Assembly: GCF_023330685.1 (NCBI RefSeq)
Contig: NZ_CP097128.1
Coordinates: 1,116,001 to 1,180,000, forward strand
Direction: 5' to 3'
Length of the DNA: 64,000 bases
Origin: Conexibacter sp. DBS9H8
GTDB taxonomy: Bacteria; Actinomycetota; Thermoleophilia; Solirubrobacterales; Solirubrobacteraceae
This document shows positions 29,365-43,551 of this stretch, in pieces. Position 1 is the stretch's first letter. The number at the start of each line of letters is the position of its first letter. The notes beneath the pieces are model-generated. The model was not told the DNA's origin. It was given only the letters and a program-made list of their open reading frames with translations, and did no database searches. The translations under genes and the position numbers were made by a program.

Positions 29365-31695
29365 CTACGCGTGTGGGCAACTCACTTTCTTGCGCGGTTT
29401 TCCGGGTACGACCTCATAACACTTCGGCGTGCTGAACTTGACCTGCAGTCGCCATGTCTGTTGGTCCTCCCAGCTGCTGAACTCAGAACCGGTTCCCAGC
29501 GGTCCGCCGCCGGGGAGCTCAAGGCATCGGATGTAGCCGATCGGTCGCCGCTGACAGAGGGTCATCGACCCGCTCCCGGAAAACGTGACCTTGGTGCCTG
29601 GCTCAACCGTGCAGTCTCGGAACGTTGGGGAGGTGCCCTTCTTGCAATGGAGCTTGACCTTGTCCGGCGGCGAGATGTGGCCGTCACTGGAGACGTAGTC
29701 GGCCGGGAGCGCCTTGCCGACACAGGAACTCAGGCCGGGGCCGCCCAAGCGCGGGTTGGGAAGCGTTACAAACCATAGGAACAGTGCATACCTGGCCGGG
29801 ACCGGCCCGCAGCGTGGATGAGGATCGTCAACAGAGGCGCCGGGTGGGCACGTGACGTTCTCGTCGAATGAGAACGTCCCGGGCAAGAAGCCGTGCGCGC
29901 CCAACAGAAGCACGCCGATCCGGGGTGAGAACACCCCGGGGGCGCGTCCGCCCGGCAGCCCCTGTGTCGACCACGTGAACGTCATCGTCCCATCACCGGT
30001 GCACGGATTATCCCTGGTCACAAAATGAACTACGTCCCTCGCCGAGCCACTGACGGTCACCGGTTGGATCACGATCAGGACCTTCTTCGGCGGGGTGACG
30101 GTGAAGTCGGCTTGCGCCGTCTTGCCCCCCACCGGGGTCACCTGGACGCGGTAGGAGCCGGGCTTCAGATGCGACGCGCCGGCGGCCGTCCCACCACTGA
30201 GGGTGTTGAACATGCCGGCGGTCAGGAACAGGGTGTTGGGGCCGGGTGGCGCCGGGACGGTCAGGCCGGGTCCGCCAAAGGACACATAGCGGGAGCAGGC
30301 CGGTCTGTTCGCGTTCGTGAGGTTCGCTGGAACGCAGCTGCCGTTGACGCGCCGCCCAGCGACCTTGAGCTGCAGCACGAAGTGCACTGACACCGGCTCA
30401 GAGAGGTTGTAGGTGGCCACCACCTGAGCCGGCCCGCCAGCCTCGAACCTGGGAGGCGAAATCTGGAAATCGCTGATCACTGGCGTCGTGGCCGGGGCGA
30501 AACTCGCGGTGACGGCCTCGTTGCCGCTGATCGTCAGATTGCAGCCGCCGCTACCGGCGCACGCTCCGCTCCAGCCGTCAAACGCAGATCCCGTTGCTGG
30601 CATTGCGTCCAGCGCGACCGCTGTGCCGGCGGGGTAGCTCTGCGAGCAGGTCCCTGGGCAGGAGATTCCGGAGCCGCTCACGGTGCCGCTGCCCTGTATC
30701 ACCACCGTCAGCGTGTGCTGATTCAACGGCGAATAGATGAGCGCGTTTCCGCTGCCGTCCGCCGCCGCGCAGAACGACGCCGACGCGCACGACACCGCGG
30801 ACAGCGGGGTGGCCGCATCGATGCTGGCAGGGGGACTCCAGAGCCCGTTGTCATATGTCAGCGCGTAGCCGCCGTTGTCCACCGCGGCGCAGAACGAGGT
30901 CGACGGGCACGACACTGATACCGGCGCGCCGGCGCTGTCGATACGTGCCGGAGCGCTCCACGAGCTGCCGTTGAAGCTCAGCTCGTTGCCCTGGGTATCG
31001 ACCGCGATACACATGGAGACCGAGGGGCACGCCACCGAGGAGAGGCTGGCGGTGTCGATCGGCTCGGGACCGCTCCATGAGCTGCCGTCGTAGGTGAGAG
31101 CGTTGCCCTGGTTGTCCACGGCCACGCAGAATGATGACGACTGACACGACACCGACGGAAGCGGGTTCTGGTTGGCGATGTCGCCCGCTGAGTTCCATGA
31201 GCTGCCGTTGAAGGTCAGCGCATAGCCGCTGGAGTCCACAGCGGCGCAGAACGACGTAGACGTGCACGACTCCGACTCCAGTCCGTTCGTATCGATGCTG
31301 TCCGCCGCGCTCCAGGAGCTGCCGTTGAAGGTCAGCGCATTCCCCTGCCCATCCACTGCGACGCAGAACGACACTGATGGGCAGGACACCGCATTGAGCG
31401 CGTAACTGTCGATCGCGGTCGGGGCGCTCCAGGAGTTGCCGTTGAAGCTCAGTGCGTTGCCCTGGCCGTCCACCGCGATGCAGAACGATGGTGACGGGCA
31501 TGACACTGACGAGATCAGGTTCGTGCCGTCAACGCTGGATGGCGTCGACCAGCCACTTGCGGCCAGCGCCATCCCCGACCCGACGAGCATCAGCACCCCG
31601 ACGATTATCCCAACGAGAGCGGTCCGAAACCAGTTTCGCTCGCGCAGACCGATGCTTGGAATTGACGGCGCGTCGATCGGGCGGCTCCTTGACAT
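29365..31695 (-). CDS. Secreted seven-repeat (beta-propeller-like) protein with bacterial-repeat and C-terminal domains
   Basis: The start is taken as ATG 31695, giving 776 aa; the upstream extension reads as non-coding. A signal/anchor helix (FRTALVGIIVGVLMLVGSG) lies near residues 27-46. Residues about 50-340 hold seven repeats of about 42 aa with core SCPSxSFCxAVDxxGxALT and FNGSSWS; each has a Cys-x5-Cys pair. Seven units suggest one seven-bladed propeller with a disulphide per blade. A List-Bact/InlB-type repeat follows (GTVSGSGISCPGTCSQSYPA, FDGWSGACAGSGGC), then an Ig-like Solirubrobacterales domain (LKPGSYRVQVTPVGGK) and a Cys-containing tail. It is an exported protein of unknown function, with a paralogue just upstream. 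Confidence 0.8.
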   Translation of the reverse strand: MSRSRPIDAPSIPSIGLRERNWFRTALVGIIVGVLMLVGSGMALAASGWSTPSSVDGTNLISSVSCPSPSFCIAVDGQGNALSFNGNSWSAPTAIDSYALNAVSCPSVSFCVAVDGQGNALTFNGSSWSAADSIDTNGLESESCTSTSFCAAVDSSGYALTFNGSSWNSAGDIANQNPLPSVSCQSSSFCVAVDNQGNALTYDGSSWSGPEPIDTASLSSVACPSVSMCIAVDTQGNELSFNGSSWSAPARIDSAGAPVSVSCPSTSFCAAVDNGGYALTYDNGLWSPPASIDAATPLSAVSCASASFCAAADGSGNALIYSPLNQHTLTVVIQGSGTVSGSGISCPGTCSQSYPAGTAVALDAMPATGSAFDGWSGACAGSGGCNLTISGNEAVTASFAPATTPVISDFQISPPRFEAGGPAQVVATYNLSEPVSVHFVLQLKVAGRRVNGSCVPANLTNANRPACSRYVSFGGPGLTVPAPPGPNTLFLTAGMFNTLSGGTAAGASHLKPGSYRVQVTPVGGKTAQADFTVTPPKKVLIVIQPVTVSGSARDVVHFVTRDNPCTGDGTMTFTWSTQGLPGGRAPGVFSPRIGVLLLGAHGFLPGTFSFDENVTCPPGASVDDPHPRCGPVPARYALFLWFVTLPNPRLGGPGLSSCVGKALPADYVSSDGHISPPDKVKLHCKKGTSPTFRDCTVEPGTKVTFSGSGSMTLCQRRPIGYIRCLELPGGGPLGTGSEFSSWEDQQTWRLQVKFSTPKCYEVVPGKPRKKVSCPHA

Positions 31696-32560
31696 GAAAT
31701 AGCCCGAACCTCGGCTAGGAGAAGACCGGGCCGGCCGGCTGTGAGCCACGGCAGGGGAAGCAGCGCGCGGTCCGGGCCGGGTCCTGGCGGTTGTGATTCT
31801 TCGTCTTCTGTTCGTGCCCCGTGACGGCGGCACCGACACCACCGGCGTTTAGGGACCCGCTGTTTCCCACCCTGGGTCGGGCATGCTCGCTCGCCCCGCC
31901 ACGAGTCGTTCCGGTCCAGAGCCGAGAATGCCGCAGTGCGACGTGCGCGGAGACCGTCATCTCGGTGGGGACAGGATCGTGAACTGAGCGCTGATCTCCC
32001 GGCTCTGTCGCCCAAACAGCGCCGCAGTGACCTGTAGGGTGTAGCGTCCGGGCTTGAGTGGGTGGCCGTTCACGCGTCCGCTGAAGCGGAACCGGTTGAT
32101 CCCAGCGTAGTCCTGATGGGTGAAGGAACCGACCGTCACCAAGTGCCAGCCGATGCGCCTGCAGCCGCCGATGGTCCCGTGTCCGGGGAGAGTGCGGCGC
32201 GGGGTGCAGTGGGTCAGCGGCGTCCAGCGCAGCAGCCGCAAGGTGCTCGTCGCCGCGAGGCTGTCCCGGTAGCTCACGACCGCGCCGCTCGCCCTGCCGC
32301 GTGGTCCTGAGTTCGGTGGGACGGACGGCCCGCTGCGCCCGGCGTGAAACCTGTGCGGCACCAGCCGCAGCCCGGAGAGCACCGCGACTGCGGGAATGAA
32401 GCTTGCGGTGACGGCGTGATCTGAGCTCATCAGCAGATAGCACCCGCCGGTCCCCGTGCACGCTCCGCTCCAGCCGGCGAACGTCGATCCCGCGGCGGCT
32501 CGGGCGCTCAGCGTGACTCTCGTGCCCGCGGGGTAGCTCTGTGAGCAGGTGCCCGGGCAG

Positions 32561-32568
32561 GAGATCCC
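32561..32568. repeat. 8-bp target-site duplication, left copy
   Basis: GAGATCCC directly precedes the element and is repeated directly after it at 33962-33969. The perfect match shows copy 1 is an undisturbed insertion and that its two flanks were once contiguous. Confidence 0.95.
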
Positions 32569-33961
32569 GGCGCTTGTGACGTTCTCGTGGGTGCGGTGAC
32601 TGGCTGAGAATGGGGCGCACGCCCCGTCGCTTCTAGCCTTTCCGGCTGTTCGAAGGCTGGGATCGACTGGAGGCGAAACGAGACGTGCGCAGCATCAGAA
32701 TATGGGCGCGGCTGCTTGGGCTGCGCGGGGCGGTGATCGAGGACGTGACAGTCAACGACGCTGGGGAGGAAGTAGAGGTCGTCGTGTCGGTCCGGCCGGG
32801 CTGGCGTCAACGGGACCGCTGTGGGATCTGTGGCCGGCGGTCTGGGCGCTTTGACCGTGGTGGCGGACGGCGGCGCTGGCGGGCGATGGACCTCGGGACC
32901 AGCTTCTGTTGGATCGAGGCTGACGCCCCGCGCGTGTCCTGTGCCCGTCACGGGGTTGTCGTCGCCCGTGTCCCGTGGGCACGCCATGACAGCCGCTTCA
33001 CCCGCGCCTTTGAGGATCAATGCGCCTGGCTGGCGGTGAACTGCTCCAAGAAGGCTGTCGCTGAGCTGATGCGCTGCTCCTGGCGGTCTGTCGGCACGAT
33101 CCTGGAACGCGTCTGCGGCGAAGCGGGGTTGAGCGTTGATCTGCTGGCGGGGCTCAAGAGCATCGGGATCGATGAGATCAGCCACCAGCGCGGTCAGAGA
33201 TACCTCACCGTTGTCGTTGACCACCACACCGGCCGGCTGGTGTGGGCCGCCCCCGGCCGTGACCGCCGGACCGTGCTCGCGTTCTTTGACCAGCTTGGCG
33301 AAGAACGCTGCAAAGAGATCGAATCGGTGAGCTGTGACATGGCCGGCTGGATCAGCTCCGCGGTCGCTGAACGGGTCCCGTGGGCGGAGCGGTGCGTGGA
33401 CCCGTTCCACGTGATCGCACTCGCGACCGACGCGCTCGATGAGGTCCGCCGCGAGCTCTGGCGCGACGCGCGACGCGAGAAGAACCTGACCCTGGCCAAG
33501 GACCTCAAGGGCGCCCGATTCTGTGTCTGGAAGAACCCTGAGCACCTCACCGACCGCCAAGTCGCCAAGCTGTCTGAGATCCAGAAGCTCAACGGGCCGC
33601 TCTACCGCGCCTATCTGCTCAAAGAACAGTTGCGCCAGATCTATCAGGCCGACACGCCCGAGGAGGCCGAACGGCTGCTGGACGGCTGGCTGTCCTGGGC
33701 GCGGCGATGTCGGCTGCCAGCGTTCTGCAAGCTCGCCAGAACGATCAAAGCCCAGCGGGACGGGATTCTCGCCGCGGTCCGTCTCGGACTGTCCAACGCC
33801 CGGGTTGAGCAGATCAACACCCAGATCCGTCTGATCACCCGGCGCGCATACGGGTTCCACTCCGCTCACGCGCTGATCGCGTTGGCGATGCTCACGCTCT
33901 CAGGGCTCTGCCCGCCACTGCCAGGACGGGTGAACTGACCCACGAAAACGTCACAAGACCC
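32569..33961 (+). mobile_element. ISL3-family insertion sequence, copy 1 (complete, 1393 bp)
   Basis: The ends are imperfect inverted repeats of about 24 bp: left GGCGCTTGTGACGTTCTCG..., right (reverse complement) GGGTCTTGTGACGTTTTCG.... It is bounded by a perfect 8-bp duplication GAGATCCC. ISL3 elements typically start with GG and make 8-bp duplications. It holds one transposase gene. The boundaries were set by comparing this copy with the copy at 42159-43551, where the same 1393 bp is bounded by unrelated flanks. Confidence 0.95.
32685..33938 (+). CDS. ISL3-family transposase (copy 1)
   Basis: 417 aa, GTG start. The N-terminal zinc-binding segment has CGICGRRSGRF and a later VSCARHG (residues about 43-90), as in the zf-ISL3 domain. 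A helical DNA-binding part follows (FTRAFEDQCAWLAVNCSKKA). The DDE catalytic core is seen as GIDEISHQRGQRYLTVVVD near residue 165, VSCDMAGW and RCVDPFHVIALA near 225-255, and the distal Glu in NARVEQINTQIR near 385. It has no frameshift, so it looks active. Its product is identical to that of the second copy. Confidence 0.95.
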   Translation: MRSIRIWARLLGLRGAVIEDVTVNDAGEEVEVVVSVRPGWRQRDRCGICGRRSGRFDRGGGRRRWRAMDLGTSFCWIEADAPRVSCARHGVVVARVPWARHDSRFTRAFEDQCAWLAVNCSKKAVAELMRCSWRSVGTILERVCGEAGLSVDLLAGLKSIGIDEISHQRGQRYLTVVVDHHTGRLVWAAPGRDRRTVLAFFDQLGEERCKEIESVSCDMAGWISSAVAERVPWAERCVDPFHVIALATDALDEVRRELWRDARREKNLTLAKDLKGARFCVWKNPEHLTDRQVAKLSEIQKLNGPLYRAYLLKEQLRQIYQADTPEEAERLLDGWLSWARRCRLPAFCKLARTIKAQRDGILAAVRLGLSNARVEQINTQIRLITRRAYGFHSAHALIALAMLTLSGLCPPLPGRVN

Positions 33962-33969
33962 GAGATCCC
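33962..33969. repeat. 8-bp target-site duplication, right copy
   Basis: GAGATCCC, identical to 32561-32568. It is part of the codons for Gly-Ile-Ser in the interrupted gene read on the minus strand. Confidence 0.95.
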
Positions 33970-35082
33970 TGAGCCGCTGACGCTACCCGTGCCGCGGCTG
34001 ATCCCCCTGAGCGACACCGTCAACGTGGGGGGCGGGGGTGGCGGTGGGCTCGCGGAGTAGGTGAGCACGTTCCCAGCGCCATCGACGGCGGCACAGAACG
34101 ACGTCGACGGACATGACAGCGAGTTGAGCGCGCCAGCGCCGTCAATGGCGGCAGGCGCACTCCAGCTACTGCCGTTGTAGGTGAAAGCATTGCCGGTTAC
34201 CCCAGTCGCATAGTCCACCGCGGTGCAGAATGACGCTGACGGGCACGACACGGCCGTGAGATCGTTGCCGCCGTCGATCCGAGCCGGCGCGCTCCAGTTG
34301 CTGCCGTCATAGATCATGGCGTTGCCATCCCCGTCGACGGCGGCGCAGAACATCGCGGAGACGCACGACACCGACTCGACCGGGTAAACGCTGGGGTCAT
34401 CGGCATTCCCCGAGATGCTCCACGAGCTCCCGTTGTAGATCACGGCCTCATCGCCGTGACTGGTGTTGAGCGCCGCGAGGCAGAATGACGAGGATGGGCA
34501 GGACACCGAGAAAAACGTCGCCGACTGGACCGGGGTGGAGCTCCAGCTGCTGCCGTTGTAGGTCAAGGCGTTTCCGGCGTTGTCTACGGCCGCGCAGAAG
34601 GAGGCCGACGGACACGACACCGAGCTGATGACGTTCGTCGCGTCGATGTCGACCGGCGCGCTCCACGTGCTGCCGTTGAAGGTGAGCGCGTTGCCGTTGT
34701 CGTCAACCGCGACGCAGAAGGACGATGAAGCGCACGACACCGACCGAACGACGTTGCCGCCGTCAATGCTCGCGCTTGTGCGCCACGAGCTGCCGTCATA
34801 GGTCAGCACGTTCGCGGGCGAGGCAGCGTCGACCGCGACGCAGAACGACGACGATGGGCACGACACCGACTCAAAGGCGTTGGTCCCGTCAATGCTGCTG
34901 GGCACCGACCAACCGTTTGACGCTAGGGCGCTTGCGGGAACAAGCACAAGGATGCCCGCGATCGCAATCGCGTTCGCGATCGCGAACCAGAGACGACGCC
35001 GATAGCGCCCAGCTGATCTGCGCAGCCTGACCGTTCTCATGCGGTTCTCCTCCATCTGTGCGTCGATGCCATGGTTCGCGAC

Positions 35083-35322
35083 CTATGCCGTCTCTGAGGC
35101 GAGCCCCGCGAGTTGTGTCTCGAGCTCTCGTATGTGCTCGACGCCAGGTCTCAGCCCCTCGTGCTCGAGGCCGCCGTGCTCGAGCAGCGCGAACGTTGCG
35201 CGGCCAAGCTCGCCGTAGGCCCGGGTGAGATCGTGCCTGAGCTGCGTCTCCCGGACGCTCTCACGAGCGCGGTTGGTGGCCTGCTCGGCCCCCTCCTTCA
35301 GCTTCTCGATCAGCCCCACCAC
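35083..35322 (-). CDS. Small helical hypothetical protein
   Basis: 79 aa, all helical and charged (LIEKLKEGAEQATNRARESV onward). AGGAGG lies just upstream, better spaced for the second GTG at 35319 than for the first. It lies upstream of the interrupted propeller gene on the same strand, 42 bp apart, so it may be co-transcribed with it. It resembles short coiled-coil actinobacterial proteins but no family is assigned. Confidence 0.65.
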   Translation of the reverse strand: MVGLIEKLKEGAEQATNRARESVRETQLRHDLTRAYGELGRATFALLEHGGLEHEGLRPGVEHIRELETQLAGLASETA

Positions 35323-42158: not shown

Positions 42159-43551
42159 GGGTCTTGTGACGTTTTCGTGGGTCAGTTCACCCGTCCTGGC
42201 AGTGGCGGGCAGAGCCCTGAGAGCGTGAGCATCGCCAACGCGATCAGCGCGTGAGCGGAGTGGAACCCGTATGCGCGCCGGGTGATCAGACGGATCTGGG
42301 TGTTGATCTGCTCAACCCGGGCGTTGGACAGTCCGAGACGGACCGCGGCGAGAATCCCGTCCCGCTGGGCTTTGATCGTTCTGGCGAGCTTGCAGAACGC
42401 TGGCAGCCGACATCGCCGCGCCCAGGACAGCCAGCCGTCCAGCAGCCGTTCGGCCTCCTCGGGCGTGTCGGCCTGATAGATCTGGCGCAACTGTTCTTTG
42501 AGCAGATAGGCGCGGTAGAGCGGCCCGTTGAGCTTCTGGATCTCAGACAGCTTGGCGACTTGGCGGTCGGTGAGGTGCTCAGGGTTCTTCCAGACACAGA
42601 ATCGGGCGCCCTTGAGGTCCTTGGCCAGGGTCAGGTTCTTCTCGCGTCGCGCGTCGCGCCAGAGCTCGCGGCGGACCTCATCGAGCGCGTCGGTCGCGAG
42701 TGCGATCACGTGGAACGGGTCCACGCACCGCTCCGCCCACGGGACCCGTTCAGCGACCGCGGAGCTGATCCAGCCGGCCATGTCACAGCTCACCGATTCG
42801 ATCTCTTTGCAGCGTTCTTCGCCAAGCTGGTCAAAGAACGCGAGCACGGTCCGGCGGTCACGGCCGGGGGCGGCCCACACCAGCCGGCCGGTGTGGTGGT
42901 CAACGACAACGGTGAGGTATCTCTGACCGCGCTGGTGGCTGATCTCATCGATCCCGATGCTCTTGAGCCCCGCCAGCAGATCAACGCTCAACCCCGCTTC
43001 GCCGCAGACGCGTTCCAGGATCGTGCCGACAGACCGCCAGGAGCAGCGCATCAGCTCAGCGACAGCCTTCTTGGAGCAGTTCACCGCCAGCCAGGCGCAT
43101 TGATCCTCAAAGGCGCGGGTGAAGCGGCTGTCATGGCGTGCCCACGGGACACGGGCGACGACAACCCCGTGACGGGCACAGGACACGCGCGGGGCGTCAG
43201 CCTCGATCCAACAGAAGCTGGTCCCGAGGTCCATCGCCCGCCAGCGCCGCCGTCCGCCACCACGGTCAAAGCGCCCAGACCGCCGGCCACAGATCCCACA
43301 GCGGTCCCGTTGACGCCAGCCCGGCCGGACCGACACGACGACCTCTACTTCCTCCCCAGCGTCGTTGACTGTCACGTCCTCGATCACCGCCCCGCGCAGC
43401 CCAAGCAGCCGCGCCCATATTCTGATGCTGCGCACGTCTCGTTTCGCCTCCAGTCGATCCCAGCCTTCGAACAGCCGGAAAGGCTAGAAGCGACGGGGCG
43501 TGCGCCCCATTCTCAGCCAGTCACCGCACCCACGAGAACGTCACAAGCGCC
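42159..43551 (-). mobile_element. ISL3-family insertion sequence, copy 2 (complete, 1393 bp, inverted)
   Basis: Same length and ends as copy 1, and every translated frame compared is identical, so the copies are near or fully identical in DNA. It lies in the opposite orientation. The 8 bases on each side (CTTTTTCT left, AAGTTTGC right) do not match, so no target duplication remains. Both flanking genes are cut at the boundary, which indicates loss of adjacent DNA after insertion. Confidence 0.95.
42182..43435 (-). CDS. ISL3-family transposase (copy 2)
   Basis: 417 aa, identical in sequence to the transposase at 32685-33938, with intact zinc-binding Cys motifs and DDE core. A recent transposition from one copy to the other, or gene conversion between them, explains the identity. 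Confidence 0.95.
   Translation of the reverse strand: MRSIRIWARLLGLRGAVIEDVTVNDAGEEVEVVVSVRPGWRQRDRCGICGRRSGRFDRGGGRRRWRAMDLGTSFCWIEADAPRVSCARHGVVVARVPWARHDSRFTRAFEDQCAWLAVNCSKKAVAELMRCSWRSVGTILERVCGEAGLSVDLLAGLKSIGIDEISHQRGQRYLTVVVDHHTGRLVWAAPGRDRRTVLAFFDQLGEERCKEIESVSCDMAGWISSAVAERVPWAERCVDPFHVIALATDALDEVRRELWRDARREKNLTLAKDLKGARFCVWKNPEHLTDRQVAKLSEIQKLNGPLYRAYLLKEQLRQIYQADTPEEAERLLDGWLSWARRCRLPAFCKLARTIKAQRDGILAAVRLGLSNARVEQINTQIRLITRRAYGFHSAHALIALAMLTLSGLCPPLPGRVN

What the first reader, a model, noticed from the sequence alone, without database searches (positions are those of the whole stretch)
29365..35040. Tandem secreted proteins with exactly seven Cys-paired repeats
Both paralogues have seven copies of SCPSxSFCxAVD...NGSSWS followed by an InlB-type repeat and an Ig-like domain. 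Seven units of about 42 aa with a Cys-x5-Cys each suggests a disulphide-pinned seven-bladed propeller, a stable extracellular binding scaffold. A large LAL regulator is encoded on the same strand upstream.
Basis: partly seen in the sequence, partly recalled or inferred. Interest (0 to 1): 0.5.

Follow-up and report, generated by a model that had tools for sequence, protein, structure and literature searches.

The report
Secreted disulphide-pinned seven-bladed propeller proteins
A soil-type actinobacterium encodes two neighbouring exported proteins built on a ring of seven blades, each blade probably clipped by its own disulphide bond, most likely used to bind something outside the cell; one of the two genes has been cut by a jumping DNA element.

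Summary
Genes A (29365-31842, -) and B (from 35055, -) each carry seven Cys-x5-Cys units after a signal-peptide-like N-terminus. AlphaFold2 gives a closed seven-bladed propeller for A (pLDDT 96.3, pTM 0.92); the best solved match is a seven-bladed designer propeller, VIA Z 33.5. A half-unit before unit 1 supplies what unit 7 lacks (Velcro closure). Three more paralogues in the genome also have seven by eye. In relatives unit counts cluster at 7 and 14 (48 of 82 runs are multiples of seven, 68 of 82 within one). Both cysteines are aligned in 790 of 797 units found with Cys masked. Same-numbered blades of relatives are no more alike than other blades: number is conserved, blade identity is not.
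'Ig-like' is undecided (C-terminus mostly pLDDT <50). The regulator next door is conserved beside a propeller in only two genomes. Function (recognition) is inferred. A disulphide-per-blade variant of a known fold; modest interest.

The parts
29365..31842 (-). Gene A: 825-aa ORF (GTG start at 31842; the ATG at 31695 is a likelier start); exported seven-bladed propeller protein
31558..31635 (-). signal-peptide-like hydrophobic segment of A
   Evidence: read; enrichment of such segments in relatives
31510..31554 (-). N-terminal half-unit of A (GWSTPSSVDGTNLIS), completes blade 7 (Velcro closure)
   Evidence: sequence; extra HMM hit 16-18 aa before unit 1 in A, B, L009, L013; alignment to propellers begins here
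30730..31509 (-). seven Cys-paired blade units of A (residues 112-371)
30493..30717 (-). InlB B-repeat domain of A (PF18998, residues 376-450)
   Evidence: E 1e-08
29368..30492 (-). C-terminal 375 aa of A: no family, no confident fold; the last 239 aa have no relative among the fetched loci
33892..35055 (-). Gene B, 5' part: 387-aa ORF with signal-like N-terminus and seven units, ends inside the inserted element
34054..34917 (-). propeller of B (half-unit plus seven units), left intact by the insertion
33962..34053 (-). linker and start of B's InlB repeat, up to and including one copy of the target duplication
32569..33961 (+). ISL3-family insertion sequence (1,393 bp) splitting gene B
32685..33938 (+). 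ISL3-family transposase, 417 aa
   Evidence: PF01610 1.6e-73
32561..32568 (.). 8-bp target duplication GGGATCTC (minus-strand reading), one side
33962..33969 (.). 8-bp target duplication GGGATCTC (minus-strand reading), other side
31957..32568 (-). Gene B, 3' part: rest of the InlB repeat and C-terminal domain, cut off from its start
   Evidence: 68.8% identity to A's InlB repeat over 64 aa
35469..38279 (-). LAL-type LuxR regulator (AAA_16, TPR, GerE), upstream neighbour

Best explanation
A and B are Sec-exported proteins whose first domain is a closed seven-bladed beta-propeller. Shown by model and sequence: seven blades, ring closed by an N-terminal half-unit, two cysteines per blade at either side of the turn between strands a and b. 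Inferred: each pair forms a disulphide outside the cell (the genome has VKOR and a DsbA-like thioredoxin), so every blade is clipped and the ring survives outside the cell. Inferred: the most variable loops (b-c and d-a, one face of the ring) recognise a ligand, most likely a cell-surface or environmental polysaccharide or protein, and the C-terminal domains (InlB repeat and others, exchanged among relatives) hold or present the ring. In gene B an ISL3 element has cut off the C-terminal part; B may still make an exported, intact propeller without its rear domains.
For: Model pLDDT 96.3, pTM 0.92, five models 95.7-96.3. Foldseek and VIA rows shown are propellers or assemblies holding them; top Z 33.5 to 7big, a seven-bladed designer protein. 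Profile match to the designed propeller Pizza7H, E 7.1e-07. Counts: 48 of 82 unit runs are multiples of seven against 11.7 expected at one in seven. Cysteines: 790 of 797 Cys-masked unit hits have both; 7 lack C1 at the aligned column, of which 5 still show a cysteine nearby with a longer loop and 2 truly lack it; spacing C-x5-C in 893 of 980, otherwise 3-12, i.e. a loop of variable length bracketed by the pair. Hydrophobic N-terminal segment in 62 of 74 ORFs against 3 of 74 inside the propeller and 169 of 812 other ORFs. VKOR and Thioredoxin_4 present. Variability: mean entropy about 3.1 bits at two b-c turn positions and about 3.0 in the d-a loop against about 2.1 in the a-b loop. No conserved residue breaks the seven-fold pattern: invariant and near-invariant columns are the repeated C, D, G, W, S, A, which argues against an active site. 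Partner domains in relatives are of extracellular kinds: SLH in L112, Big_1, He_PIG, HYR, InlB, DUF4232.
Against: No ligand, no binding site and no lectin motif was identified. Relatives were found with patterns that contain Cys, which favours Cys-bearing units. Neither A nor B has a recognised surface anchor. The C-terminal half of A is unexplained. 12 of 74 ORFs show no hydrophobic N-terminal segment by my rule.
Confidence: 0.62

Rival explanations
1. The propeller is a protein inhibitor or decoy of a secreted enzyme, as BLIP-II (a secreted RCC1-like propeller of soil bacteria) inhibits beta-lactamase.
For: Exported, actinobacterial, seven blades, no active-site pattern. BLIP-II as a secreted binder of soil bacteria is named in PMC9218822 section 12 (read).
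Against: The fused InlB and other C-terminal domains, SLH anchoring in L112 and tandem double propellers fit presentation on a surface better than a free inhibitor.
Confidence: 0.12
2. It is an enzyme (lyase, sialidase or lactonase type) using a propeller active site.
For: Many propellers are enzymes (general knowledge).
Against: No asymmetric conserved residues in 49 domains; blade identity is not conserved between proteins, which an active site built from particular blades would require.
Confidence: 0.05
3. The cysteine pairs bind metal or form disulphides between neighbouring blades rather than one within each blade.
For: Both cysteines are nearly always present, so loss patterns cannot separate the pairings.
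Against: The loop between the two varies from 3 to 12 residues while both are kept, as expected for a clip at the base of a hairpin; 2 of 797 units keep C2 alone, which fits neither pairing well.
Confidence: 0.1
4. Both genes are decaying relics with no current role; the insertion in B is a sign of this.
For: B is split by an element with two further copies at 100% identity in the genome, so the insertion is recent. The family is patchy: 19 of 61 relatives including the own genome, 13 of 296 genomes of the phylum.
Against: A is an intact 825-aa frame; the five paralogues keep seven units and, with a few shorter loops, their cysteine pairs; patchy multi-copy families are common among surface proteins.
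Confidence: 0.11

Closest known systems
Highly repetitive WD40-type propellers (WRAP and others), Pereira and Lupas, PMC9218822
   Same: Blades amplified within the protein, number of similar blades peaking at 7 and 14 (their section 14 part 1, read); independent amplification in close relatives (section 12). VIA best match is v13WRAP-T.
   Different: No WD40 Pfam model among the 25 families shown; two cysteines per blade; exported.
Tectonin and Tachylectin propeller lectins (PF19193, PF14517)
   Same: Weak profile hits: Tectonin in 9 of 49 and Tachylectin in 4 of 49 domains at E <= 0.01; PDB profile hit to Tectonin 2 (5fsb), E 0.008.
   Different: The individual hits that I saw with cut-offs were below them (Tectonin 16.1 and 20.4 bits against 30; Tachylectin 16.7-24.6 against 29.8). 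Tachylectin-2 is five-bladed (PMC8023676, passage).
PfCyRPA of Plasmodium (PMC5349852)
   Same: A propeller in which disulphides sit one per blade and stabilise each blade (passages).
   Different: Six blades, five disulphides, neuraminidase fold with an Asp-box, eukaryotic; the blade made of both termini has none there, here all seven units have a cysteine pair.
UmbA lectins of Streptomyces umbrella particles (PMC13274773)
   Same: Actinobacterial exported propellers, including seven families of seven-bladed ones, that serve as lectins (passages).
   Different: [quoted passage not shown] A and B begin with the propeller. Sequence relation not tested.
YCF48 / PSII_BNR (PF14870)
   Same: Top of the Foldseek list by E-value (8.3e-13); PSII_BNR hit in L094 (5.5e-04, below cut-off).
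   Different: 12-16% identity in the Foldseek rows; different role (photosystem assembly).

Membership tests
Seven-bladed beta-propeller fold | Closed ring of seven blades | tested here: met
   Model with 7 x 3 long strands plus short outer strands, pLDDT 96.3; full-length VIA alignment to seven-bladed structures, Z 31-33.5
Seven-bladed beta-propeller fold | Velcro closure joining N- and C-termini in one blade | tested here: met
   N-terminal WSxPxxID half-unit and truncated unit 7; half-unit hit by the unit HMM in four ORFs
Seven-bladed beta-propeller fold | Repeat number constant in homologues | tested here: met
   48 of 82 runs multiples of seven, 68 of 82 within one; residual scatter not resolved one by one
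WD40 (PF00400) | Match to the WD40 profile | tested here: inconclusive
   Not among the 25 of 35 families shown for 49 domains nor for the window proteins
Tectonin (PF19193) | Profile score above curated cut-off | tested here: inconclusive
   Two members scored 16.1 and 20.4 against 30; the best member (E 6.5e-08) was not looked at singly
Tachylectin (PF14517) | Profile score above cut-off; five blades | tested here: not met
   16.7-24.6 bits in 4 of 10 domains against 29.8, 29.0 in L104 full length; seven blades
InlB B-repeat (PF18998) in A | Profile score above cut-off | tested here: met
   35.4 bits against 23.6
Ig-like domain in A | Profile or fold match after the InlB repeat | tested here: inconclusive
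   No Pfam match, model mostly below pLDDT 50
ISL3-family insertion sequence in B | DDE_Tnp_ISL3 transposase, inverted ends, 8-bp duplication (8 bp as typical is recalled) | tested here: met
Lectin | Carbohydrate binding | not testable with these tools
   needs a binding assay

The most novel reading that the evidence does not exclude
A separate lineage of propellers, each blade clipped by its own disulphide, serves these bacteria as an exported recognition repertoire: new rings are made again and again by copying or homogenising single blades, always closing at seven, and are joined to exchangeable rear domains, much as diversified receptors are made elsewhere.
Probability: 0.25. Interest if true: 0.55.

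Novelty: new variant of a known kind. Interest (0 to 1): 0.36.

Why it matters
A propeller in which every blade carries its own cysteine pair is a natural, presumably rugged exported scaffold, and the family shows blade number held at seven while blade identity turns over. It gives a tractable case for asking why rings close at seven, and a possible scaffold for engineered binders. No Pfam or NCBIfam model reached its cut-off on the repeats of A and B, so such genes are probably left as hypothetical proteins. It does not change any established picture.

Tried and rejected
Open solenoid: rejected by the model and structure matches. Widely varying repeat number: rejected, but the automatic count is noisy. 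A second counter based on a Cys regular expression gave 46 of 77 runs as multiples of seven and counted extra cysteines of the InlB repeat and tails (window A came out as 9), so I use; itself gives A and B as 8 because the half-unit is counted. The 14 of 82 runs more than one away from a multiple were not resolved; some are split frames (L039 and L027, L109) or very long proteins (L091, L094, L120).

Blade-order test: same-numbered blades 40.5% identical, other blades 40.8%, same number best in 131 of 900 (150 random protein pairs); no cyclic shift restores order (200 random pairs). Against a simple reading of fresh amplification in every protein: the single nearest blade among all proteins lay in the same protein in only 19 of 120 sampled cases. 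I therefore claim loss of blade identity, by amplification or gene conversion, not which.

LAL linkage: orthologues in 3 of 28 genomes of the genus at E <= 1e-60; beside a propeller in two (window, G017/L077), beside a 1,981-aa exported-looking protein without units in the third. In L082 an AAA_16 protein lies 87 bp upstream; its frame is cut at the contig end and no GerE domain was matched. Weak.

Whole-protein model of A: C-terminal part uninformative.

Literature: searches. None of the listings showed a paper on this cysteine-paired family; the two propeller surveys hold no 'disulfide' or 'cysteine' in their main text. I opened PMC9218822 (passages, sections 12 and 13 and part 1 of section 14), PMC8023676, PMC5349852 and PMC13274773 (passages only). 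The library holds open-licence papers only.

Selection caveats: relatives come from Cys-containing patterns or from similarity to A. Unit counts used the 122 records held (window and L001-L121). Of 51 distinct places that I counted by eye, 40 were fetched with flanks before counting, some others only as the short loci that itself gave; L127-L135 were fetched later and are not in the counts, and of these only L127 was looked at. Of 71 candidate propeller domains, 47 went into alignment A2 together with A and B.
Full report
What is there. The window is G000:C1:1116001-1180000 of a 3.64-Mb single-contig genome. A genome of the same genus in this set, G012, has the contig length of Conexibacter sp. 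S30A1 (3,458,291), so the host is a Conexibacter-type actinobacterium. Two ORFs on the minus strand carry the repeats: A, 29365-31842 (825 aa), and B, whose ORF 33892-35055 (387 aa) stops early. Each has exactly seven C-x-[ST]-x-[SM]-[FM]-C units. Tandem Repeats Finder sees only parts of the arrays at DNA level.

Between the two lies an ISL3-family element, 32569-33961. Its transposase is plain (PF01610, 1.6e-73), its ends are inverted repeats, and it is flanked by GGGATCTC on both sides. B's first part ends its own coding in SVSGSGIS; the frame beyond the element begins GISCPGTCSQSYPAG; A reads SVSGSGISCPGTCSQSYPAG without a break. So the element sits inside B's InlB repeat. The propeller of B is untouched. 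The element has two more copies at 100% identity in the genome, one of them at 42159-43551 of this window, and four further long copies at 73-95% plus a 642-base piece at 95%.

Fold. An alignment of A, B and 47 domains from named loci keeps all 14 cysteines without exception. With it AlphaFold2 gives pLDDT 96.3 and pTM 0.92. Foldseek finds 1,739 PDB matches at E <= 0.001; those listed are propellers or assemblies that contain them. VIA aligns model residues 5-281 to the seven-bladed designer protein 7big at Z 33.5, rmsd 2.2 over 273 residues; the other rows shown are propellers of WD40 type or assemblies holding them. The alignment starts in the N-terminal half-unit GWSTPSSVDG, and unit 7 lacks that half, so the ring closes in the usual Velcro manner.

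Repeat number. Three more paralogues in the genome (L003, L004, L006/L007) have seven units by eye; the HMM finds 7, 6 and 6 in them. A unit HMM over all loci held then, after removing redundancy and ORFs touching a locus end, gives 74 ORFs with counts peaking at 7 and 14. With gaps of about one missing unit filled, 48 of 82 runs are multiples of seven and 68 of 82 are within one. For WD40-type repetitive propellers the same peaks at 7 and 14 are in print (PMC9218822, section 14, read), so the rule is not new; its occurrence in this lineage supports a closed seven-fold ring.

Cysteines. In a search with all cysteines masked, 790 of 797 units have both cysteines at the aligned columns; of the other seven, five have a longer loop with a cysteine nearby and two truly lack the first. 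Spacing is C-x5-C in 893 of 980 and 3 to 12 residues in the rest. With a signal-like N-terminus in most members (hydrophobic segment in 62 of 74) and VKOR and a DsbA-like protein in the genome, a disulphide per blade is the natural reading. It is not proven, and the search patterns contained cysteines.

Turnover of blades. Between proteins, same-numbered blades are no more alike (40.5%) than different ones (40.8%), and no rotation of the ring improves this. Within proteins blades are more alike (median 46%, up to 79%; A 58%, B 56%), and within-protein identity exceeded the between-protein value in 189 of 200 pairs. Yet the single nearest blade was in the same protein in only 19 of 120 cases. 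The number seven is kept while blade identity is lost, by repeated amplification or by gene conversion.

Likely function. No conserved residue breaks the seven-fold pattern, so an active site is unlikely. Variable positions concentrate in the b-c and d-a loops; the a-b loop with the cysteines is steadier. That b-c and d-a loops share one face of a propeller, and that it is often the ligand face, is recalled. Rear domains differ between relatives: InlB in A, DUF4232 in the orthologue next to the same regulator, SLH, Big_1, He_PIG, HYR elsewhere. I conclude an exported recognition module; the ligand is unknown. Streptomyces umbrella particles show that actinobacteria use exported propeller lectins against cell-wall glycans (PMC13274773, passages), but A and B lack the UmbA4 domain layout.

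Regulator. The LAL gene upstream has orthologues in 3 of 28 genomes of the genus. In G017 it is again followed by a propeller gene; in G004 by a 1,981-aa exported-looking protein without units. A regulatory link is possible, not shown.

Distribution. 17 of 28 genomes of the genus and 19 of 61 relatives, own genome included, match at E <= 1e-6; 13 of 296 genomes drawn from the phylum match at E <= 1e-20, with at most eight candidates scored per genome. The 45 named loci are mostly Actinomycetota MAGs, with a few labelled Dormiibacterota, Gammaproteobacteria, Bacillota/Clostridia and Acidobacteriia.

Verdict. The thing is a disulphide-per-blade variant of a very well known fold; interesting mainly as a scaffold and as a clean case of blade turnover at fixed blade number.

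Noticed in passing
42159-43551 (-): A second copy of the same ISL3-family element, inverted relative to the first and 100% identical; its flanks show no 8-bp duplication.
   Followed up: partly
G000:C1:3634728-3636119: A further 100% identical copy of the element lies exactly at the end of the genome's single contig, so the assembly ends in a repeat.
   Followed up: no
35083-35319 (-): A 78-aa charged, probably coiled-coil ORF (GTG start) between the LAL regulator and gene B, read by eye; no search of its own frame was made (the query had the wrong frame and says nothing about it).
   Followed up: no
L127:421-6363 (-): In genome G004 the LAL orthologue (55%) is followed by a 1,981-aa exported-looking protein with weak Ig-like hits and no propeller units.
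   Followed up: partly
L039/L027 (G017:C139): A relative interrupted by one TGA between two open stretches that both carry units: a possible pseudogene.
   Followed up: no
L077:3629-5248 (+): The orthologue beside the same regulator has a DUF4232 domain (PF14016, 1.1e-23) in place of A's InlB and C-terminal part: a rear-domain exchange.
   Followed up: yes
29368-30084 (-): The last 239 aa of A have no relative among the fetched loci and no confident fold.
   Followed up: partly
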